Below are positions 52,097-61,348 of a DNA stretch of 64,000 nt, one piece after another. The notes beneath the pieces were generated by a model. It worked only from the letters and a program-made list of their open reading frames with translations. It searched no databases and was not told where the DNA came from. Made by a program: the position numbers and the translations under genes. The DNA comes from Ruminococcus sp. Lineage in GTDB: Bacteria; Bacillota; Clostridia; Oscillospirales; Ruminococcaceae. Numbering within the stretch: the first letter of the stretch is position 1; each line of letters opens with the position of its first letter. The stretch lies in contig JAFUXL010000013.1 of the NCBI GenBank assembly GCA_017470905.1, forward strand, positions 1 through 64,000, in the 5' to 3' direction.

Positions 52097-52846
52097 TTAT
52101 ATGAGATTTTGCGGATTGAGGATATTGTATTTTTTCTTGTACTGTTTCGGCGTTGCATTCATATATTTTTTGAATATCTTTATAAAATAGCTCTGTGAGC
52201 TGAAACCGAGCATTACGCTTATTTCAAGGTCTGTATATTCCGTGAAAAGCAGGAGAGAGGCTGCCTCTTCTATTTTTAATTTATTTACATAATCGCTGAA
52301 TGATATGCCCGTTTCGTTCTTGAAAAGCCTTGAAAGATAGGCAGGACTTATTTTCAGATGCTCCGCCGCATCATCAAGGAGGATTTTTCCGTGAAGATTG
52401 TACATTATATAGTCTATTGTGCGGATAACCTGCTTGGAATAAACACCATTGAGTTTAAGACGGCGCATTTTATTCGTGTATCCCTCAATCATTTCGGCAT
52501 GAACGGCACGGATTTCCTTTTCTGTGTTCACCTTGTCCATTTTCATGATATAAAAATCGCTCAGCGCATAGGACTCATCGGGTGTCATGCCGCCCTTTAT
52601 GCAGTAACGTGCTATAATAGCGGTAAGTACTACAAGATGATATTTCAGATTTCGTATCGGGTCATCGCTGAGAGTTCCGCAGCCGTCGCAGAAAAGCGGT
52701 TTCATGAATACCCTTACCAGCTCCATATTTCCCGAACATATACTCTTGTAAAATGCCATTTCCCTGTCGAAGGACGCACGTTCAAAGTCCTGTTCACGCT
52801 GGGAGAACAGATATTGCGCAAGGATTTCTTCTGTATGGTTATTCAT
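52097..52846 (-). CDS. AraC-family transcription regulator
   Basis: 249 aa. The C-terminal double HTH (about 150-249: LDDAAEHLKISPAYLSRLFK ... LEISVMLGFSSQSYFIKIFK) is of AraC type. The N-terminal 140 residues are helical and not a cupin. The start at 52846 is set by AGAGGTG six bases upstream; a GTG three codons earlier is possible. The promoter is consensus. It is divergent from the FMN reductase gene, a natural target. Confidence 0.9.
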   Translation of the reverse strand: MNNHTEEILAQYLFSQREQDFERASFDREMAFYKSICSGNMELVRVFMKPLFCDGCGTLSDDPIRNLKYHLVVLTAIIARYCIKGGMTPDESYALSDFYIMKMDKVNTEKEIRAVHAEMIEGYTNKMRRLKLNGVYSKQVIRTIDYIMYNLHGKILLDDAAEHLKISPAYLSRLFKNETGISFSDYVNKLKIEEAASLLLFTEYTDLEISVMLGFSSQSYFIKIFKKYMNATPKQYKKKYNILNPQNLI

Positions 52847-52914
52847 GCCAATCACCTCTGTGGTTTATTTCTTTGTGTCTCTCTGTGTATTGTTACAGGT
52901 AATTTCTTATGATA

Positions 52915-52943
52915 ATTATACACTAAAACAAAATATCTGTCAA
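52915..52943 (-). promoter_or_regulatory. AraC gene promoter
   Basis: On the minus strand: TTGACA (52943-52938), 17-bp spacer, TATAAT (52920-52915), perfect hexamers. Confidence 0.85.
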
Positions 52944-53001
52944 TAGCGTTATATTATTTTTTATGCCACTATGACCAGGCAAAATGTACGGACATTGGTT
53001 C

Positions 53002-53030
53002 TTGACAATCCGCATATACTGTGGTATAAT
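53002..53030 (+). promoter_or_regulatory. FMN reductase promoter
   Basis: TTGACA (53002-53007), 17-bp spacer ending TGTGG, TATAAT (53025-53030), perfect hexamers with extended -10. Confidence 0.88.
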
Positions 53031-53059
53031 CAGTAAGGAATAATTATCAGGAGGTATTT

Positions 53060-53689
53060 ATGAAAGTATTAATCTTGAACGGAAGTCCTCACGCAAACGG
53101 CAACACGGCTGTCGCTGTGAATGAGCTTGCAAAAACCTTTGAAGAAAACGGCATAGAGGCGGAAGTCTGTCATATCGGCAACAAGGATATTCGTGGCTGT
53201 ATCGCCTGCCGCAAGTGCGCAGAGCTTGGAAAATGCGTATTCAACGATGCTGTCAACGAGCTTGCCCCGAAATTTGAACAGGCGGACGGTATTATCGCCG
53301 CAACACCCGTTTATTACGCTTCGGCAAATGCTACGCTTATCGCCTGTCTTGACCGTCTGTTTTTCAGCACACACTTCGATAAAACCATGAAGGTCGGCGC
53401 AAGCGTTGTTATCGCAAGACGTGGCGGCTGTTCAGCAACTTTCGATGAGCTGAACAAGTATTTTACTATCAGCAATATGCCCATTGCTTCAAGTCAGTAC
53501 TGGAACAGCGTTCACGGAAGAGAAATCGGCGAGGCTGAAAAAGATGCTGAGGGCTTGCAGACAATGAGAGTTCTTGCAAGGAATATGAGCTTTCTTATGA
53601 AATCCATAGCTCTCGGAAAGGAAAAATTCGGTCTGCCCGAAAAAGAACATTGGCAGCCTACACATTTTATCAGACAGGATATTGAATAA
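53060..53689 (+). CDS. NADPH-dependent FMN reductase / iron-sulfur flavoprotein-like
   Basis: 209-aa flavodoxin-fold oxidoreductase. The FMN phosphate loop is LNGSPHANGNTA (about 5-16). A Cys-rich loop, RGCIACRKCAELGKCVFND (about 45-63), holds four cysteines that could bind an Fe-S cluster or act as a redox disulfide. The VYYASANATLIACLDRLFF segment is the dimer/flavin region. It is typical of stress-related flavin reductases in anaerobes. AGGAGG precedes the ATG. It ends before a palindromic element. Confidence 0.9.
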   Translation: MKVLILNGSPHANGNTAVAVNELAKTFEENGIEAEVCHIGNKDIRGCIACRKCAELGKCVFNDAVNELAPKFEQADGIIAATPVYYASANATLIACLDRLFFSTHFDKTMKVGASVVIARRGGCSATFDELNKYFTISNMPIASSQYWNSVHGREIGEAEKDAEGLQTMRVLARNMSFLMKSIALGKEKFGLPEKEHWQPTHFIRQDIE

Positions 53690-53714
53690 TTTTCGATGAT
53701 TTTTGTGTTTGTTT

Positions 53715-53775
53715 TCCCCCGTCCCCAAAGGGATTTCCGTTAATAATCTGCGGCGGAGGAAACAGTGTTTTTCAT
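53715..53775. repeat. Palindromic element copy interrupted in the loop
   Basis: Left arm GTTTTCCCCCG and right arm GCGGCGGAGGAAAC are separated by about 27 nt instead of 3-7. The right side continues as AGTGTTTTT, the shared edge motif. It may be a copy with an insertion in the loop. Confidence 0.55.
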
Positions 53776-53786
53776 ATACCGCACGG

Positions 53787-53826
53787 AAAAAGCCTCCGCA
53801 GGATTATTCCCGCAGAGGCTTTTTGT
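53787..53826. terminator. Bidirectional terminator
   Basis: AAAAGCCTCCGC/GCAGAGGCTTTTT hairpin (one mismatch) between the convergent FMN reductase gene and the sigma-dockerin gene. Confidence 0.85.
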
Positions 53827-53883
53827 ATTTGCCGCCGATAATTGCTGATATATCGGTGGCGGTTTTAAGGAGAGAAATGGAGT

Positions 53884-56259
53884 TTAGCTGAACGTTTCGG
53901 GAAGTTTGTCTATAATTTTTGCATCAAATTTCTGAATTGCCGCCGCATCAAGACCGGTTATTCCTGAACCGGGGTCGTAACAATCGGCATTTATTGTTTC
54001 CTGTTCGGTGAGGGTATATTTTTCGGAATTTGCAATGTTTTGCAGGATTTTCACCGCATCGGAAATGCTTACCTTGAAATCACTGTTTGCATCGCCGCTT
54101 ATGTAGGAGGCATATATATCTCCACCGCACAAATCAATCGTTGTTGTTACAGCCTCGGCAGGGGTAGTCCATATTGCCACAGTAGTTGTCATAACGTATT
54201 CGGAAACAACTACTCTCACTTCTGCCGTTTCACCTTCGGGAGTTTCAGCCCTGAGAACGGTTTCGCCTGCGGAAATACCCCTGAGATTTACAATATCTCC
54301 CTGAAAATTAGAGATTTTAGCGATATTTTCATCATCAACCGTATATTGCACAGGGGAGTCTCCTATTTCATAGGATTTGTTTCCGAAATCATATACCGAA
54401 AGTCTGGTGAAAATGCCTTCGCCTACCTCTCCCGATAAAATGCCTTTTGTATTTGCGAAATGCAAACCGTTCTCTGAAACATATATCGAATGAGTGTAAA
54501 AATGGCTTATACCGTCATCATCAGTAACTTTAGCCCTGAGAAATGTGCTTCCTGATGAAATGCCCTCAACATAGATTGATGTTCCGTCAGTTTTTACGAT
54601 TTTTGCAATTTCTTCGTCCTGAATTGAAAATTCAATTGCAGGGTCTCCTGCCAGATGACCAAAACTCATGCCCTGAGTGAGAATTTCTGAAATTTCTCCT
54701 GTTTTCACGCTTGTAGATGAATTTACAAAGTCATAATTTATAAAATTATAATCCTTTATTTCTCCCGTCTCATCTGTTGCAAGAGTGTATCCGATTTTCC
54801 CGGTTTCATGCTCCCAGACACCCCAGATACCGCCAAGCGATTTGGCAAGTTCTGCCTGTTCTTCTGTAATATTGCAGACTACTATGGGAACATATCTGCT
54901 TATCTCTGCATTTTCCATGTCTATTCCCAGTTCGGCAATATATCCTTCTGCCATTTCGGGGATTGTCTGCTCTACCATTTCAAGATAAACTCTATGGTAA
55001 TATTCACTCTGCATTAAATAAATTTCGCTGTCGGTATATTTTGTCCTGTCAAGCGTGTCTGCATATTCTTCTGCCATTGATTGAGCTTTTTCAGCGGCGA
55101 AATCAGTCATTTCATCAATGTCAAACCAGATGTCATATGTTTTTGTTTCCGATATTTCGGTATTTTCCGCAATAGCCACGGCAGTTGTAAGGTTCTCGCT
55201 GTAAGCCGTTGTTGTTGTCATTCCGGAAACTGCCATTGTCGCAGCCGTTGCGATTGTGATAAGTTCTTTTTTCATAGTCGTTTCCTCCTCAATGATTTCG
55301 TCTGTGTTTTCGGCGGCTGTAATTTCTTCGGTATCACCCTCCTCCTGCGTTGCTGTCTTCTCCTGAAATTCTTCTGCCTGTTCATCGGTTATATCTATGA
55401 TGTATTCGCTTTCGGGAGAAGTCTCATGCGGCTTGTTCGTTGTTGTGTTATATGATACACGGCTGATATTTTCCGTAGTAAGCTGTTTTTCGGAGGCTGT
55501 TGCCGTGTTTTTCATATCTGATGTGCTTTCAATTCTGATGATTTCATGCGGAGTTCTGCTCTCGATAATTTCTATATTATTTACGGATGTTGCAGCCATG
55601 GCGGCAGCCGTCAGGACAACGGAGATTGTTATCCTTGAATTGACGGAAAGCCCCGATATTTTAAAATCTTTTAATTTGTTCCTGATTAAAACAAAACCAA
55701 AGGCTACACCGTAAAGTAAAATGTTTTTGATTTTTGAAAACTCTTCATGCAGTTTTTTTCTTGAATAATATAGCCTTGATTTGACAGTTCCCTCCGAGCA
55801 TTGCATTATTCTTGAAATTTCCGAGACGGATTTTTCATCATAATAATATAACAAAACAGTCGTTCTGTGCAGCGGCGGCAGATAACCATTCAATACCTTA
55901 AATATAATTTCGCACAATTCTTTTCTTTCTGTGATGTTTTCGGGGATTAATGCCTTATCTTCGGGAATTTCGCAATATTCTTCATCGGCGGAATATTCGG
56001 GGCTTTTTTTCTTTAAATTGTCAAGAAAAGTATTGCGGGCAACCGTTCTGAGCCACGAGGATATATTTTCGCCGCAGAATTGATTTATTTTCGTCCATGC
56101 TGTCAGATATACCTGCTGCATGAGGTCGTCCGCATCAAAATCATTTCCGCATAGATTTCTGCAATACCTGTAAAGCTTCTTGTGAGTTTGCCGGTATATT
56201 TCGGAAAAGGCATTTTTGTCGCCCGATTTTGCCTTTTCAATTAAATTAATGTCGTTCAT
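53884..56259 (-). CDS. ECF sigma factor fused in frame to exported Ig-like/dockerin protein
   Basis: The reading frame is open for about 790 aa (from the GTG at 56277; ATG 56259 taken). Residues 10-75 are sigma region 2 (NLCGNDFDADDLMQQVYLTAW) and 125-180 are region 4 (VSEISRIMQCSEGTVKSRLY). A hydrophobic stretch lies at about 185-235. An acidic/Thr-rich linker (about 240-334) follows. At residue 335 (ATG 55275) a signal-peptide-like start MKKELITIATAATMAVSG appears, preceded by GAGGAGG with ideal spacing. The rest has two Ig-like (Big_2-like) repeats and a C-terminal dockerin (SGDANSDFKVSISDAVKIL ... GLDAAAIQKFDAKII). Either one transmembrane sigma-receptor protein or two products from nested starts is made. 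Confidence 0.8.
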   Translation of the reverse strand: MNDINLIEKAKSGDKNAFSEIYRQTHKKLYRYCRNLCGNDFDADDLMQQVYLTAWTKINQFCGENISSWLRTVARNTFLDNLKKKSPEYSADEEYCEIPEDKALIPENITERKELCEIIFKVLNGYLPPLHRTTVLLYYYDEKSVSEISRIMQCSEGTVKSRLYYSRKKLHEEFSKIKNILLYGVAFGFVLIRNKLKDFKISGLSVNSRITISVVLTAAAMAATSVNNIEIIESRTPHEIIRIESTSDMKNTATASEKQLTTENISRVSYNTTTNKPHETSPESEYIIDITDEQAEEFQEKTATQEEGDTEEITAAENTDEIIEEETTMKKELITIATAATMAVSGMTTTTAYSENLTTAVAIAENTEISETKTYDIWFDIDEMTDFAAEKAQSMAEEYADTLDRTKYTDSEIYLMQSEYYHRVYLEMVEQTIPEMAEGYIAELGIDMENAEISRYVPIVVCNITEEQAELAKSLGGIWGVWEHETGKIGYTLATDETGEIKDYNFINYDFVNSSTSVKTGEISEILTQGMSFGHLAGDPAIEFSIQDEEIAKIVKTDGTSIYVEGISSGSTFLRAKVTDDDGISHFYTHSIYVSENGLHFANTKGILSGEVGEGIFTRLSVYDFGNKSYEIGDSPVQYTVDDENIAKISNFQGDIVNLRGISAGETVLRAETPEGETAEVRVVVSEYVMTTTVAIWTTPAEAVTTTIDLCGGDIYASYISGDANSDFKVSISDAVKILQNIANSEKYTLTEQETINADCYDPGSGITGLDAAAIQKFDAKIIDKLPETFS
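55276..55290 (-). promoter_or_regulatory. Internal ribosome binding site and start of the secreted dockerin product
   Basis: GAGGAGG (55290-55284) followed by 8 nt and ATG at 55275. The same GAGGAGGAA-N-ATGAAAAAAGAA layout begins the dockerin peptidase gene at 59159, which supports real initiation here. It would give a 463-aa exported protein (53884-55275). Confidence 0.7.
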
Positions 56260-56293
56260 GATGTTCTGCTGTATCACCTCTCTTTACTATAAA

Positions 56294-56319
56294 GACGACA
56301 AAATCTGTGTTTGGGTTCA
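56294..56319 (-). promoter_or_regulatory. ECF-type autopromoter candidate
   Basis: On the minus strand: TGAAC (56319-56315), 17-bp spacer, CGTC (56297-56294), placed just before the sigma factor start. This matches the GAAC/CGTC pattern of ECF sigma promoters, which ECF factors usually use to control their own genes. Confidence 0.65.
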
Positions 56320-56337
56320 ATGTTTTTTGATATTTTT

Positions 56338-56432
56338 ATAAAAAATCTCCGCATAACCATGCGGAGACTCTATATATAGACTTTTTCTGCCGACAATCAT
56401 GATATGATTTTTGCACGTTTACTCTGATTTGC
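56338..56432 (-). ncRNA. Candidate small RNA or leader upstream of the sigma gene
   Basis: A transcript starting near 56432 from the TTGACA promoter (56462-56467; TATGAT 56439-56444; 17-bp spacer) would run about 95 nt to an intrinsic terminator at 56347-56366 (CTCCGCAT/ATGCGGAG, then ATTTTTTATA). The interior has two small dyads, ATCATGAT and TCTATATATAGA. No RNA family is recognised. It could be an attenuated leader of the sigma gene. Confidence 0.5.
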
Positions 56433-56438
56433 AATTTT

Positions 56439-56467
56439 ATCATAATATATTATTATTGAAATGTCAA
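56439..56467 (-). promoter_or_regulatory. Sigma-A promoter upstream of the hairpin
   Basis: On the minus strand: TTGACA (56467-56462), 17-bp spacer, TATGAT (56444-56439). Confidence 0.7.
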
Positions 56468-56642
56468 TATGTTTTTTGTAAAAAGCGGTTTTTTGGTGAA
56501 AATATACAAAAATATATGTAAAATAAAAAATTAAAAAAATTTTTGCGGATAATCAACGGTTTTGTGTTGAAAAAAATGCCGTTTTGAACCTATTATGAAA
56601 GGGCTTTAAAAAATCCTGCCTTTTCAGAAAAGGAGAAAAATT

Positions 56643-56870
56643 ATGGTTTCAATAAGAAATGAGAGATTTATGGAATTTAAAAACGGCAGCACTGTTGTCA
56701 TTGCCGAAATTCAGGTTGACAGCGCAGACGAACTCCCTGCAAGCTATTACCTGGGAAGATACTTGTATCAGGGTTCAATCGCATGGGATATTTCGACAGG
56801 CGATTTCTATGCCCTGTCAGGCTCAGGCGAATGGGTAAAACAGAACGGGGGCGGTGATAATAATGCCTGA
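56643..56870 (+). CDS. Small phage-tail-associated protein
   Basis: 75-aa protein of no firm family. Its end, AWDISTGDFYALSGSGEWVKQNGG, is like the short proteins that precede phage collar or tail-fibre genes. AAAAGGAG lies seven bases before the ATG. Its stop overlaps the start of the next gene. It is the first of a three-gene cassette with a repeat-rich fibre protein and a lysozyme. Confidence 0.65.
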   Translation: MVSIRNERFMEFKNGSTVVIAEIQVDSADELPASYYLGRYLYQGSIAWDISTGDFYALSGSGEWVKQNGGGDNNA

Positions 56871-57540
56871 ACTCTATAATATGATGATGATGAAAGCCCT
56901 TGGCGGCGGTACAGGTGTGAAAGAAAATTTCGACGCAGGCAAAACCCTTGAAAAAGGTTCAAATGTTACAATAAACGGCTCGGTCAAAACGGTGGCTGAC
57001 AATTCCGAAATTTTCAACGACTATGAAAACAACAAAGCCGCTTCAAGCTTTTCCCATGCCGAGGGCAGCAAAACGGGCGCAGCAGGTCTTTATTCCCATG
57101 CCGAGGGCTATCAGACAGTTGCAATGGGTACAAGCTCCCATTCCGAGGGGTATAATTCAAAAGCAACGGGAAACAACTCTCACGCTGAGGGCTACGGCTG
57201 CACTTCTTCGGGAATACAGTCACATTCGGAGGGCTACAGCAATACTGCAAGCGGCGACTCCTCCCATGCAGAGGGTCTGGGCAGCACGGCAAGCGGAAAT
57301 CATTCCCATGCAGAAGGCAGCAACACAATTGCCGCAAGCTTAAATCAGCACGTTCAGGGAAAATATAACATCTCCGACAGCAGCGGAAAATATGCCTTTA
57401 TCATCGGCAACGGTTCATCGTCAAAACGTTCAAATGCCATTGCTGTTGACTGGGACGGAAAAATCTATGTCGGCAATTCGGAAACGGGTATTGAACTGAA
57501 TGATTTGCTTTCACGCATTGAGGCTCTTGAAAATGCTTAA
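56863..57540 (+). CDS. Tail-fibre/YadA-head-like repeat protein
   Basis: 225-aa protein built on seven 14-15-residue repeats of the form S-H-(A/S)-E-G-x-x-(S/T)-x-A-x-G (about 65-165), the pattern of YadA head and phage-tail trimeric beta-helices. Before it is a short helical start (MPELYNMMMMKALGGG). After it lies a C-terminal domain ending in a coiled-coil-like LLSRIEALENA. The ATG at 56863 is inside the stop of the previous gene. Such proteins form trimeric fibres in phage collars or tailocins. Nothing here shows which surface it would bind. Confidence 0.82.
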   Translation: MPELYNMMMMKALGGGTGVKENFDAGKTLEKGSNVTINGSVKTVADNSEIFNDYENNKAASSFSHAEGSKTGAAGLYSHAEGYQTVAMGTSSHSEGYNSKATGNNSHAEGYGCTSSGIQSHSEGYSNTASGDSSHAEGLGSTASGNHSHAEGSNTIAASLNQHVQGKYNISDSSGKYAFIIGNGSSSKRSNAIAVDWDGKIYVGNSETGIELNDLLSRIEALENA

Positions 57541-57554
57541 AAGGAGGAATTTTT

Positions 57555-58262
57555 ATAAAAAACGGAATTGATGTTTCACAGTGGCAAGGGCAGATTAACT
57601 GGTCTGCCGTCAGCGCAGATTTTGCTGTAATCCGTGCCGGCTACGGCAGAGAAATTTCCCAGAAAGACACAAAATTCGAGGAATATTACAGCGGCTGCAA
57701 ATCAAGAAATATCCCTTGCGGCGTTTATTGGTACAGCTACGCAAAAACTCCCGAAGATGCCGAAAAAGAGGCTGATACCTGCCTGAAAATCATTTCGGGC
57801 AAAAAATTTGAATACCCGATTTATTACGATGTTGAGGAACAGTCAGTTTTAAATCTCGGCAAGGCGAATGTTTCCGCTATAATAAGGGCTTTCCTCAAAA
57901 AAGTCGAAAATGCCGGGTATTTTGTCGGACTGTATATGTCCGCATCTCATCTGAATAATTTCGTTGAGGACGATATTAAAAATCGTTACGCCGTCTGGAC
58001 TGCGCACTACGGTGTGAATAAACCCTCGTATTCGGGAAATTACGGTATGTGGCAGAAATCTTCAACAGGCAGAATTTCGGGAATTAACGGTGATGTTGAC
58101 CTGAACGAAGCGTATGCTGACTATCCGGGAATAATTAAAAATGCAGGACTTAACGGCTTTCAAAAGCCCGAAAATACTGCGGTAAAATCCGAACAGAAAA
58201 CGAAAGAAATCGAAATTAAAATTGACGGCGAAACGTACAGCGGCACTCTTGTGAAAATTTGA
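57555..58262 (+). CDS. GH25 lysozyme (endolysin-like) with ATA start codon
   Basis: 235-aa lysozyme of the GH25 muramidase family: GIDVSQWQGQINW (catalytic Asp region) at the N-terminus, FAVIRAGYG, YPIYYDVEEQ (DxE catalytic pair), VGLYMSASHL and the closing MWQKSSTGRISGINGDVDLN. It has no ATG, GTG or TTG start; the frame is closed just upstream at 57528. AGGAGG sits exactly seven bases before ATA AAA AAC GGA ATT GAT, where related genes have ATG. So it either starts at ATA or lost its start by one mutation. The short C-terminal tail has no known cell-wall-binding domain. Confidence 0.82.
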   Translation: MKNGIDVSQWQGQINWSAVSADFAVIRAGYGREISQKDTKFEEYYSGCKSRNIPCGVYWYSYAKTPEDAEKEADTCLKIISGKKFEYPIYYDVEEQSVLNLGKANVSAIIRAFLKKVENAGYFVGLYMSASHLNNFVEDDIKNRYAVWTAHYGVNKPSYSGNYGMWQKSSTGRISGINGDVDLNEAYADYPGIIKNAGLNGFQKPENTAVKSEQKTKEIEIKIDGETYSGTLVKI

Positions 58263-58295
58263 TTTGATAATACATTAAAATATTTAAACATCATA

Positions 58296-58332
58296 AAAAC
58301 AGTCCCTTTGATTTTTTCATAGGGACTGTTTT
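58296..58332. terminator. Terminator after the lysozyme gene
   Basis: AAAACAGTCCCT/AGGGACTGTTTT perfect stem. It can stop both strands, between the lysozyme gene and the convergent dockerin pseudogene. Confidence 0.85.
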
Positions 58333-58351
58333 GCTTTAGGAGAGAAACGGA

Positions 58352-59159
58352 TTAGTCGGTTATTTCATTAAGAGTTGAAGATTTTGAATATTTTTGCAGA
58401 ACCAGAGAGGCATCAGTGGCATTTATTTCACCGTCTCCGTCAAGGTCTGAAATTTCCGGACTGAAATTATAGTATTTCCGTCCCCGTCTTTCTGTTGCAG
58501 ATTGCTGTCAAGGGTGAGAATGCATTTGTTATAAGTTTTATCATTGAATATCCATTCACCGTCTAGCCTATACCGACAACGGCATGACCGAAATTCGTGC
58601 CGCTAAGGTTGATGACAAAATATTTATCCTCCTGCATGGCTCTTTCAGCGTATTCGATAAGGTCTCTGCATTGTTTTTTGTAGTCACTGTTGCAGAAATA
58701 ATATCCGCCTGACAGCTCTTTTTCCTGATATAACTGTGTTGCCGCATAGTATGAGACAATGCCGTTCACATCATCATTGAACTGTATGTCGTTTATGGTC
58801 TGCGCTCCCTCCTGAATGTCGGAGGGCTTTATTATGCCGTTATGCATGAGAACCTGCAAAACAGCCATTCCGTAGCAGTGACCACTTGCAGCTATTTTAG
58901 CCATTTGTAGCATGACTACTTTGTAATTATCAATATCAGAACAATTTTTATTAAATTCTGTGATATAGTCATCTTTCACATTGGCTGAAACATAATTTGG
59001 AAAGTTGAAATAATCCGTATCTGCTCCGAGAGACGAGGCTAATTCCGATACGGTCGTTTCGTTTGTTTCCGGTTTTTCGACAGCACGGACCTCCATGCTT
59101 GTCATGGCTGAAACTGCTGTTACTGCGGTAGTGGCGATTGAAATAATTTCTTTTTTCAT
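58352..59159 (-). pseudogene. Dockerin-bearing cysteine-peptidase-like gene with two frameshifts
   Basis: The start at 59159 (MKKEIISIATTAVTAVSAMT) has a GAGGAGGAA ribosome site and a signal peptide. The body holds SGHCYGMAVLQVLMHNG and NFGHAVVGIG, a Cys/His pair pattern like papain-fold peptidases. The frame stops at 58563. Restoring one base there continues as DGEWIFNDKTYNKCILTLD. A second one-base loss near 58475 shifts again, and the third frame reads SDLDGDGEINATDASLVLQK, a dockerin calcium repeat, to a stop at 58352. Only one dockerin repeat is clear. The N-terminus matches that of the dockerin product at 55275. Confidence 0.72.
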
Positions 59160-59195
59160 TGGTTCTTCCTCCTCGGTTTCATTTTCTGCATTATC

Positions 59196-59224
59196 ATTAT
59201 AATATACCTCGATTAAAACGTCAA
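59196..59224 (-). promoter_or_regulatory. Promoter of the peptidase pseudogene
   Basis: On the minus strand: TTGACG (59224-59219), 17-bp spacer, TATAAT (59201-59196). Confidence 0.7.
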
Positions 59225-59261
59225 TAATTTTGCTAAGGTTGACCACGCAAATCAATTTTTC

Positions 59262-59302
59262 AAAAAAATATCCGGAACGATTTATAAAAATCATTCCGGA
59301 AT
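59262..59302 (-). terminator. Terminator of the reductase/dehydrogenase operon
   Basis: TCCGGAATGAT/ATCGTTCCGGA hairpin, followed on the minus strand by ATTTTTTT. Confidence 0.8.
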
Positions 59303-59334
59303 AAAGTTATTTCTTATTCAGCTTTCCGCTATAA

Positions 59335-60174
59335 TTAAAGGTCGGGCTGAAGCTCCATCGTTGCATACATAGCTATCTGTTCTGGAGTTGCATTGTAATA
59401 ACGGACGCCCTTGTTTATCTTTGCTATCTCAGCCATTTCCCCGGCTGTAAGTTCAAAGTCGAATATATCGAAATTGTCACGGATATGGTCGGGATTCTTC
59501 GAGCCGGGGATAACGATATTTCCGCTCTGGATATGCCAGCGGAGAATTATCTGCGCATTGGACTTATTGTACTTCTTGGCAAGTTCGCTGAAAATCGGCT
59601 CATTGATAAGGCTCTTGTCGCCGTGACCGAGAGGATACCATGCCATGAGTCCCATGTTAGTCTCAGCGAGTATCTTTTTCAGCTCCGTCTGCGGAAAATA
59701 AGGGTGAGCCTCCACCTGAACCACCTGCGGCTTTATCTCCATAGTCTCGATAGCCTCTTTCAGCAGATTATCAGGGAAGTTAGAGAGACCTATAGCCTTT
59801 ACCTTGCCTGCCTTGACAGCCTTCTCGATGTTTTTGTAACCCTCACGCCAGTTGTCTGTGGGCTGGTGCAGGAAAAGCAGGTCAATATAGTCCGTGCCGA
59901 GACGTGCGAGTGTATCCTCAACAGCAGTTTCCTTCTCATAAACCGTAGACCAAAGTTTAGTTACGAGAAAAATTTTCTCACGGGGAACGCCGCTTTTCTT
60001 GATTCCACGACCTGTAGTACTCTCGTTCATATAGCCGTTTGCAGTGTCGATAAGGCGAACGCCGCTGCGGAGTGCGCTCTCCACTGCTGCCTCAGCCTGG
60101 TCGGGTGTGAGCATGAATACTCCTATGCCAGCCATAGGCATTTTCAGTCCGTTGTTAAGTGTTGTAAATTCCAT
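59335..60174 (-). CDS. Aldo/keto reductase
   Basis: 279-aa NADPH-dependent aldo/keto reductase (AKR5-like). The tetrad is visible: Asp in LIDTANGYMNE with the following Tyr, Lys in LVTKLW, His in LFLHQP. GLSNF and the C-terminal IPGSKNPDHIRDN cofactor motif are also present. The start at 60174 is set by AGGAGG. It is downstream of a broken alcohol dehydrogenase gene on the same transcript, so the pair handles aldehydes or ketones. Confidence 0.92.
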   Translation of the reverse strand: MEFTTLNNGLKMPMAGIGVFMLTPDQAEAAVESALRSGVRLIDTANGYMNESTTGRGIKKSGVPREKIFLVTKLWSTVYEKETAVEDTLARLGTDYIDLLFLHQPTDNWREGYKNIEKAVKAGKVKAIGLSNFPDNLLKEAIETMEIKPQVVQVEAHPYFPQTELKKILAETNMGLMAWYPLGHGDKSLINEPIFSELAKKYNKSNAQIILRWHIQSGNIVIPGSKNPDHIRDNFDIFDFELTAGEMAEIAKINKGVRYYNATPEQIAMYATMELQPDL

Positions 60175-60197
60175 AATAATGTCCTCCTGAATAAATT

Positions 60198-61348
60198 TTA
60201 TCTGCACTCGTTAAGAATTTCGAGTATCTCGTCATCGCTGAGCTTTTTGCAGCAGCCGCCTGTGTGTATGGACGACTTTGCAACATCCGCATAGTCAGTG
60301 TCGGTTATGCCCATTTCGCTGAATTTTGTGGGCAGTTCCATTTTCTTTATGAAGTCCGCAAGAGCCTCAATTCCGGCAAGAGCCGCTTCTTCGTCATTGA
60401 CAGAACTTACGCCCCAGACCTCACGGGCAAAGCGTGCAAACTGCGGAATGTTATCCTTATAGATATGGCGGTACAAAACGGGGTGGATAACAGCAAGCCC
60501 CTGACCGTGATTGCAGTTGGTGTAAGCACCCAACTGATGTTCAATCATGTGGCACTGGAAGTCAGTCACCTTGCCCAGCTTGAGTATGCCGTTCTCGCCC
60601 ATTGCAGCCGCCCATATCAGCTCGCTGCGCACCTGCTTGTCATCGGGATTTTTCAGCGTCTCACGCATATTTCTGATAACATTCCTCATGACGGCTTCGT
60701 TTATCTCATCGCTGATATTGACCGTCCTCGGACTGCCGAAATAGGTCTCCATGCAGTGGCTGAGAGTGTCGAAAGAACCCGAAATTATCTGCTTCATGGG
60801 CATTGTCATGGTGTAGCCCACGTCAAGCACGGCGAAGTCATAAAATGCGCCCCACAGATGAGACTTCATCATCTTTTCCTCATTGGTGATGACTGCGCCG
60901 TTGTTCATCTCCGCACCCGTGCCGAACGCCGCACAACTGCGCCCATGGGTATGAACTCCGTGGGATTTTTGTGAGCCGTGTACTCCGTCTCCCAGATGTC
61001 CCCGTCCATTTTCGCCTGTGCTGAAACTATCTTGCAGCAGTTGATAACAGAGCCGCCGCCCACTGCCAGGATAAAGTCGATATTATTCGATTTAGCAAGC
61101 TTTGCGCCCTCCTGCACCTTTGCGTATGTGGGGTTGGACATTACACCGCCGAACTCCGTGACATTTTTGTCCGCAGCTTTGAGAATTGCCATTATCTCAT
61201 CATAAATGCCGACCCTTTTCACTGAGCCTCCGCCATATGCAAGCAGGACATTTTTGCCGTACTTTGCAAGCTCAGCCGCAAGGTTTTCCCTTGCCGCACC
61301 ATCGCCGAAATATGCTTTTACGGGATAGCTGTAGCTGAATTTATTCAT
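60198..61348 (-). pseudogene. Iron-containing alcohol dehydrogenase with one frameshift
   Basis: The N-terminal part (60905-61348, MNKFSYSYPVKAYFGDGAAR ... AVGGGSVINCCKI) and the C-terminal part (from 60908, MNNGAVITNEEKM ...) belong to one butanol-dehydrogenase-like gene. Near 60931 the expected ...VVTAFGTGAEMNN is broken by loss of one base (GTG-CGGCG in place of GTG-NCGGCG), giving an early stop. The metal ligands DTLSHCMETYF and EHQLGAYTNCNHGQG remain. It could be a natural null allele or a sequencing error. Confidence 0.85.

What the first reader, a model, noticed from the sequence alone, without database searches (positions are those of the whole stretch)
53884..56277. ECF sigma factor read in frame through a membrane segment into a secreted dockerin protein
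One uninterrupted frame joins a complete ECF sigma factor, a hydrophobic stretch, a Thr/Glu-rich linker, two Ig-like repeats and a dockerin. This could be a one-protein receptor that ties transcription to cellulosome docking. Inside the frame a strong ribosome site and a signal-peptide start (55275) suggest a second, secreted product, so the locus may use nested translation. The matching start of the peptidase gene at 59159 supports real initiation. ECF sigma factors with fused C-terminal outer domains are known, but a dockerin end is not something I recognise.
Basis: partly seen in the sequence, partly recalled or inferred. Interest (0 to 1): 0.85.

Follow-up and report, generated by a model that had tools for sequence, protein, structure and literature searches.

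The report
Sigma-factor receptor fused to cellulosome dockerin
In a Ruminococcus-type gut bacterium one gene runs without a stop from a gene-switch protein (a sigma factor) through the membrane into a protein that plugs into the plant-fibre-digesting machine, and a second start inside the gene probably also makes the plug-in part alone, which may let the cell sense the state of that machine.

Summary
Codon usage stays in frame across the junction, so a hidden frameshift is unlikely. The ATG at 55275 has a perfect Shine-Dalgarno site and a signal peptide; secreted dockerin proteins examined have at most 36 open codons before theirs, against 334 here. The sigma factor falls in a clade of single-chain ECF-membrane-ectodomain proteins; here the dockerin protein takes the ectodomain's place. 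A second genome carries a homologous linker, also in frame and stop-free, before another secreted dockerin protein (its contig ends before any sigma factor). A third has an ECF-membrane-linker frame ending in a weaker dockerin. Elsewhere the three parts are separate adjacent genes. Best reading: a condensed operon with nested products, a membrane-tethered dockerin-tipped sigma factor and its free secreted ectodomain. Expression, topology and signal are untested. One-chain ECF receptors are known (ECF52, IutY); the dockerin tip and embedded secreted product appear new.

The parts
53884..56277 (-). whole open frame, 797 aa (GTG 56277; start homologous to relatives ATG 56259): ECF sigma - membrane segment - linker - secreted dockerin protein
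56002..56199 (-). sigma-70 region 2 (residues 27-92)
   Evidence: Pfam PF04542, 53 bits
55750..55881 (-). sigma-70 region 4 (residues 133-176)
   Evidence: Pfam PF08281, 42.6 bits
55582..55632 (-). probable membrane segment (about residues 216-232), preceded by a basic stretch; an earlier hydrophobic peak lies at 187-198
   Evidence: hydropathy peaks; other long-frame ECFs have their first hydrophobic segment in the same zone after the sigma part; topology inferred from the positive-inside rule (recalled)
55276..55572 (-). Thr/Glu-rich linker (residues 236-334), homologous to the linker of L279
   Evidence: score 82 against shuffles mean 52 (1 of 1000 as high) and 91 control linkers at most 58; only the in-frame pair of frames scores high
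55284..55289 (-). internal Shine-Dalgarno AGGAGG, 8 nt before ATG 55275
   Evidence: weakly structured RNA around it, z -0.36
55195..55275 (-). internal start and signal peptide (residues 335-361); start of the predicted 463-aa secreted product
   Evidence: stand-alone homologues such as L029, L030, L032, L034, L037 start with a signal peptide here; cleavage site not predicted by a tool
54838..55158 (-). recurrent unnamed domain of dockerin proteins (residues about 374-480)
   Evidence: profile from 18 sequences, the window's among them; alignment A3; no useful Pfam or PDB match
54208..54765 (-). two Ig-like (Big-type) repeats, about residues 505-585 and 600-690
   Evidence: internal similarity by eye; repeat 2 matches seven other loci at 35-63%; no Pfam name
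53908..54102 (-). dockerin, group-1 type (residues 726-790)
   Evidence: own profile E 1.4e-30 (the window was among the profile's seeds); PDB 5m2o_B E 3e-11; Pfam below cut-off
56340..56370 (-). terminator-shaped leader hairpin followed by U6, between a promoter-like site (56467-56439) and the gene
   Evidence: fold of the leader, z -3.51; promoter-like site 11 of 12; the terminator scan did not list the hairpin
53785..53825 (-). strong hairpin with U-run after the stop
   Evidence: fold, z -8.35; not listed by the terminator scan
58465..59294 (-). remnant of a second locus of related kind: start and signal peptide at 59159, frame broken after about 200 codons

Best explanation
The locus is one gene with two nested, in-frame products. 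(1) A 797-aa single-chain ECF sigma factor, tethered to the membrane by the segment at about residues 216-232, whose extracytoplasmic end carries the unnamed domain, two Ig-like repeats and a dockerin. (2) A 463-aa secreted cellulosomal protein, started at 55275 from its own strong ribosome site and signal peptide, consisting of that same ectodomain. It arose when the C-terminal ectodomain of an already single-chain ECF-membrane protein was replaced, in frame, by a complete secreted dockerin gene with its ribosome site and signal peptide. Shown: the open frame, the domains, the internal initiation signals, the clade, and an in-frame linker-to-signal-peptide junction shared with a second genome. 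Inferred: the sigma part is held inactive at the membrane and freed by regulated proteolysis, as proposed for ECF52 (SCO4117) and reported for IutY; the dockerin is the input, reporting whether a cohesin on the scaffoldin is free or engaged; the free secreted copy competes for the same cohesins and sets the threshold.
For: Continuous coding signal in frame 0 across the junction. Only the 55275 ATG has a 6/6 Shine-Dalgarno site in the ORF, with an energy like those of dockerin-gene starts (-8.2 to -13.5 for 12 of 15 listed; window -11.5). Tree: window ECF in a 9-row clade, SH-aLRT 98, of which 8 rows are long single-chain frames (quick tree). L279 of genome G033: homologous linker, at least 92 open codons, same SD-ATG-signal peptide, followed by a different secreted dockerin protein. 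Junction motif without mismatch only in these two of 125 genomes. L075: independent single frame ECF-membrane-Thr linker-dockerin-like end. Split counterparts as three adjacent genes: L028/L227 and L103/L228; 19 of 42 secreted ORFs examined have an ECF within 3.5 kb upstream. In related long ECF frames an in-frame ATG with strong SD lies just before the membrane segment: 7 of 32 such ATGs against 9 of 779 elsewhere at -10 kcal/mol; synonymous recoding gives mean 1.5, maximum 5 in 1000 runs.
Against: No close relative of the whole gene was found: best ECF identity 44% (one search found none), and the second genome's contig ends in the linker, so no sigma factor is seen there. The signal-peptide segment is a second hydrophobic stretch in the long chain and could put the dockerin on the wrong side, though it is the weakest of the three peaks (1.15 over 19 residues against 1.54 and 1.48). 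L075's dockerin scores below Pfam's cut-off (16.5 bits, or 21.8 for the segment alone, against 22.9). My dockerin profile hits 1 of 96 long ECF frames, the window's own. Separate-gene arrangements are commoner. Six of the seven strong internal starts before the membrane segment lie in one clade, so they are not independent, and at the laxer limit of -6 the excess is small (13 against mean 8.7, 22 of 1000 as high). The genome is a draft, 73.75% complete; no reads, expression or protein data.
Confidence: 0.55

Rival explanations
1. Two ordinary adjacent genes that lost the stop between them. The functional products are an ECF-membrane protein with a short tail and a secreted dockerin protein; the read-through is a tolerated by-product without a role.
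For: Separate ECF, membrane protein and secreted dockerin genes recur; stand-alone homologues of the second half start with their own signal peptide; the internal start is strong, while neither candidate sigma start reaches 5 of 6 SD matches under the same rule.
Against: The in-frame, stop-free linker junction is shared with a second genome whose linker is only about one third identical, so it is not a single fresh mutation. The ECF's own clade is single-chain. Codon usage gives no sign of non-coding sequence before the internal start.
Confidence: 0.25
2. One product only: a single-chain ECF receptor with a dockerin ectodomain. The internal ribosome site and signal peptide are relics of the swapped-in gene and are silent.
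For: Clade of single-chain ECFs; L075 has the same plan without an internal signal-peptide start flagged.
Against: AGGAGG at 8 nt before ATG in weakly structured RNA, followed by a signal peptide, would normally be used; L279 keeps the same site.
Confidence: 0.12
3. Sequencing or assembly error in the draft genome hides a stop or frameshift.
For: Draft genome, 73.75% complete; no raw reads available here.
Against: Frame-0 codon score continuous across the junction and no competing frame; a second genome with the same open junction.
Confidence: 0.05

Closest known systems
ECF52 sigma factors, e.g. SCO4117 of Streptomyces (PMC5826349, PMC8999054: passages seen)
   Same: One chain: ECF sigma, membrane segment, extended low-complexity linker, extracytoplasmic module; activation by proteolytic release proposed. 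In one ortholog (S. clavuligerus) a stop separates the outer module, which the authors think may be a sequence error.
   Different: ECF52 has a zinc-finger domain and a carbohydrate-binding module and is described as confined to Actinobacteria; the window protein has no recognisable zinc finger, a dockerin instead, and an embedded secreted product.
IutY of Pseudomonas putida (ECF243), sigma fused to its membrane anti-sigma and activated by regulated proteolysis (PMC8999054: passages seen)
   Same: Sigma factor covalently tethered to the membrane and freed by proteolysis (for the window, inferred).
   Different: Siderophore signalling in a Gram-negative; no dockerin, no nested secreted product.
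SigI/RsgI biomass-sensing systems of Acetivibrio (PMC3413522, PMC11557425, PMC12484212: passages seen)
   Same: A sigma factor coupled to an extracellular module so as to control cellulosome genes.
   Different: SigI is not an ECF of this type; sensor and sigma are separate proteins; the sensor modules named in the passages are CBM, GH, PA14-like, peptidase or unknown, not dockerins.
Separate-gene ECF - membrane protein - secreted dockerin sets in the same genus (L227, L228, L332, L334, L345, L352, L362, L364)
   Same: Same three kinds of part in the same order; some carry the same unnamed domain or the same secreted protein family.
   Different: Three genes with stops between them; here one open frame.

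Membership tests
ECF sigma factor | sigma regions 2 and 4, no region 3 | tested here: met
   Pfam r2 and r4_2 above cut-off; NCBIfam TIGR02937 96.6 bits against cut-off 42.9
Single-chain ECF with C-terminal membrane-spanning extension | membrane segment and extracytoplasmic part in the same frame as the sigma domain | tested here: met
   one frame of 797 codons; hydrophobic segment 216-230; clade of long-frame ECFs, 8 of 9 rows. Insertion and topology not measured
ECF52 | zinc-finger domain between sigma and membrane segment | tested here: not met
   no zinc-finger match at E<=1; only about 40 residues lie between region 4 and the membrane segment
ECF52 | carbohydrate-binding module outside | tested here: not met
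   no CBM match at E<=1
SigI/RsgI | SigI-type sigma with separate RsgI anti-sigma gene | tested here: not met
   sigma is ECF type; no anti-sigma recognised by eye among the ORFs of 80 aa or more listed nearby
Dockerin (type I, group-1 type) | tandem Ca-binding loop-helix motifs | tested here: met
   5m2o_B E 3e-11 aligned over both halves; Pfam score below cut-off
Dockerin (type I, group-1 type) | binds a cohesin | not testable with these tools
   needs a binding assay
Secreted dockerin protein with its own start | SD, ATG and signal peptide at 55275 | tested here: met
   initiation itself not measured
Nested-product gene | both products made in the cell | not testable with these tools
   needs ribosome profiling or proteomics

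The most novel reading that the evidence does not exclude
A cohesin-occupancy sensor: the cell displays a dockerin on a sigma factor and secretes the same dockerin module free from an internal start of the same gene, so that the balance of free cohesins to dockerins on the cellulosome is read directly by transcription. More widely, ruminococcal single-chain ECF genes would be condensed operons that keep internal start sites for their membrane or secreted halves.
Probability: 0.25. Interest if true: 0.9.

Novelty: new variant of a known kind. Interest (0 to 1): 0.68.

Why it matters
How ruminococci match dockerin proteins to scaffoldin sites is unknown to me, and in the passages I saw the RsgI sensors are described for Acetivibrio and Pseudobacteroides, not for ruminococci. 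A sigma factor that carries a dockerin, and whose gene also makes the free docking module, would tie cellulosome assembly directly to transcription and could be tested with a handful of constructs. The comparison also shows ECF, membrane protein and secreted dockerin protein as a recurring gene set in this genus, which suggests regulators for these secreted proteins.

Tried and rejected
Hidden frameshift in the linker: rejected, frame 0 best throughout the junction. An ATGA stop-start overlap in the +1 frame exists but follows automatically from ATG AAA, so it was given no weight. Close whole-gene relatives: two genome-contig scans gave none and 8 distant loci, four of which seem, from equal contig lengths, to be contigs already met under genome handles. 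DNA-level search of the surroundings: neighbours match at 69-88%, but no row of the (capped) listing lies within the gene apart from the window's own. Identity of the unnamed domain: no useful Pfam or PDB match; I thought of an inhibitor-I9-like fold from the look of the sequence, but this is untested and not claimed. Rfam over 52500-60500: nothing at E<=0.5. PHROGs: nothing for the secreted half. A third match to the junction motif, G107, with 2 mismatches, lies before a gene that looks like trpD and has 19 upstream codons. The careful tree did not finish; only the quick one is used. Rows dropped: L052, a close ECF relative, has a frame of only 268 codons with an ambiguous residue and fell between my long and short lists, so it is not in the tree; L121 (151-aa ORF) is in the tree but was not examined further; dockerin ORFs without a recognised start within 150 codons were dropped; ORFs under 200 aa were dropped and two rows (L354, L370) gave no signal-peptide call. 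Papers: searches. I saw listings, and passages of PMC3413522, PMC11557425, PMC3573020, PMC5814915, PMC8999054, PMC8103513, PMC5826349 and PMC12484212; none showed a dockerin fused to a sigma factor. I read no paper whole, and most subscription papers are not held.

Full report
What is there. The frame lies on the minus strand, 56277 to 53884, and is open for 797 codons. The window is part of contig C10 of a 2.04 Mb draft genome, 73.75% complete. Order of parts: sigma region 2 (27-92) and region 4 (133-176); hydrophobic peaks at 187-198 and 216-230; a Thr/Glu-rich linker to residue 334; a signal peptide at 335-361; a domain at about 374-480; two Ig-like repeats; a dockerin at 726-790. The basic stretch between the first two hydrophobic peaks makes the second one the likelier membrane segment, by the positive-inside rule (inference).

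The dockerin is real. Its nearest solved relative is the group I dockerin 5m2o_B (E 3e-11). Pfam's own score is below its cut-off. Of the ORF's 39 matches in its own genome, 35 fall on the dockerin end, 3 on the sigma part and 1 is itself.

The second start is real as a sequence feature. Of all in-frame ATG, GTG and TTG codons in the ORF, only residue 335 has a 6/6 AGGAGG match at a usable distance; one more, GTG 643, reaches 5/6. The RNA around it is weakly structured (z -0.36). Fifteen dockerin ORFs for which the script found a signal-peptide-like start, from the own genome and the genus, have 0-27 open codons upstream; here there are 334. Many stand-alone proteins with the same unnamed domain begin at the equivalent signal peptide, for instance L029, L030, L032, L034, L037 and L040; in others (L035, L044, L045, L048, L049) the domain lies deeper in the protein.

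No frameshift is hidden. A codon-usage score trained on 31 other ORFs of the window favours frame 0 in 59 of 65 windows; the six exceptions lie within residues 25-49, 121-181 and 697-721, none at the junction.

Relatives of the sigma part. Searching 125 genomes of the genus, 24 hold an ECF match at E<=1e-15; of 396 genomes of the family, 91 do at E<=1e-14. Many of the matched frames are long. I fetched 80 stretches and used the loci of the searches as well; 96 non-redundant ECF ORFs carry at least 110 residues after the sigma part. In a quick tree of 138 ECF cores, the window falls in a 9-row clade (SH-aLRT 98): 8 rows are long single-chain frames including the window, and one is a short ORF (L121) that I did not examine further. 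The careful tree did not finish, and L052, a close relative with a 268-codon frame and an ambiguous residue, fell outside both lists. So the ancestor of this ECF was most likely already a single chain with an outside domain, and the dockerin protein has replaced that domain (inference).

Other dockerin-tipped sigma factors. Of the 96, my dockerin profile hits only the window. A second, L075 in genome G104, is ECF, membrane segment, Thr-rich linker and a dockerin-like end in one 526-codon frame, with no internal signal-peptide start flagged. Its dockerin is weak: 16.5 bits in the whole protein, 21.8 for the segment alone, against a cut-off of 22.9, and E 0.006 to a solved dockerin. It lies in another part of the tree, next to frames with different outside domains, so the swap appears to have happened more than once.

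A second genome with the same junction. In G033, one of the nearest genomes by DNA in this region, the relative of the window's 59159 gene lies in a 690-codon frame that runs off the contig end. Before its signal peptide there are at least 92 in-frame codons of Thr/Glu-rich linker, with the same ribosome site. That linker matches the window's linker: score 82, about one third identical, against 52 +/- 8 for shuffles (1 of 1000 as high) and at most 58 for 91 other ECF linkers. Only the in-frame pair of frames scores high; all eight other pairings reach at most 47 and contain stops. The junction DNA is 73% identical over 80 bases. The motif occurs without mismatch in no other of 125 genomes; one match with 2 mismatches is unrelated. 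The protein behind it ends in a dockerin above Pfam's cut-off (28.2 against 22.9 bits). The sigma factor itself is not seen, because the contig ends; the best ECF match elsewhere in G033 (81% complete) is distant, 27% identical.

Separate-gene versions. L028/L227 (G064): ECF, then a membrane protein with a short N-terminal part, Thr linker and the same unnamed domain, then a secreted protein with that domain and a dockerin. L103/L228 (G002): ECF, in-frame TAG, membrane-linker protein, then a secreted dockerin protein. Among 42 secreted ORFs of the 59159 family (40 regions chosen from the 134 rows, plus L279), 19 have an ECF within 3.5 kb upstream on the same strand, with one to four ORFs between; in most of them one of these shows a hydrophobic segment by eye, which no tool tested. 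At least two pairs (L357/L358, L350/L359) are near-copies. In-frame codons before the signal peptide are 0-36 in all but L279 (92, open); two rows gave no signal-peptide call.

A wider hint. In the long ECF frames, ATGs just before the first membrane segment have unusually strong ribosome sites: energy at or below -10 in 7 of 32, against 9 of 779 elsewhere. With the amino acids kept and codons redrawn, the mean is 1.5 and the maximum 5 in 1000 runs. At -8 it is 9 observed, mean 3.9, 2 of 1000 as high; at -6 the excess is small (13 observed, mean 8.7, 22 of 1000 as high). Six of the seven lie in one 11-row clade, so this is at most two origins.

How it may work. The sigma part would be held at the membrane and released by regulated proteolysis, as proposed for SCO4117 and reported for IutY (PMC5826349 and PMC8999054, passages seen). 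The dockerin would be the input, sensing cohesins, and the free secreted copy would compete with it. These steps are inference. The long chain has a second, weaker hydrophobic stretch (the signal peptide, 1.15 over 19 residues against 1.54 and 1.48); with lysines on its outer side it would not insert easily, but this is untested.

Control region. A promoter-like site (11 of 12 matches) at 56467-56439 is followed by a hairpin (13 pairs in the fold, some with the U-run; 9 in its perfect core) and U6 before the gene, which could be an attenuator. Promoter-like matches in the region are only slightly above shuffles (14 against 9.1 +/- 3.0), and the terminator scan listed neither this hairpin nor the strong one after the stop.

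Verdict. A confirmed and unusual gene: a new variant of the one-chain ECF receptors, with a dockerin tip and probable nested secretion of the same ectodomain. Function and expression are open.

Noticed in passing
58465-59294: The gene with the matching start at 59159 is a broken remnant: it matches residues 77-298 of the G033 relative, then residues 292-325 in another frame, and no further match was listed in the window.
   Followed up: yes
56340-56370, minus strand: Terminator-shaped hairpin with U6 in the leader of the sigma gene, downstream of a promoter-like site; a possible attenuator, though the terminator scan did not list it.
   Followed up: partly
L061, L127, L130, L132, L135, L137, L157: Single-chain ECF genes, from seven genera, with a 6/6 ribosome site and ATG in frame just before the membrane segment, suggesting a second, membrane-anchored product.
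   Followed up: partly
L332, L334, L345, L352, L362, L364 and others: Recurring gene set ECF - membrane protein - secreted dockerin protein in the genus, ECF within 3.5 kb upstream of 19 of 42 ORFs examined.
   Followed up: partly
L166, L167, L168, L171, L175, L179, L183, L185 (frames of 1136-1182 aa): ECF sigma factors whose single frame continues into 7-10 hydrophobic segments, a pattern like a permease fused to a sigma factor.
   Followed up: no
L245, residue 201 of its open frame: ECF frame with a strong ribosome site and ATG soon after the sigma part, reading into a possible anti-sigma protein in the same frame.
   Followed up: no
56854-57540, plus strand: Gene of many short SHAEG-type repeats next to the sigma gene, divergent from it.
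   Followed up: no
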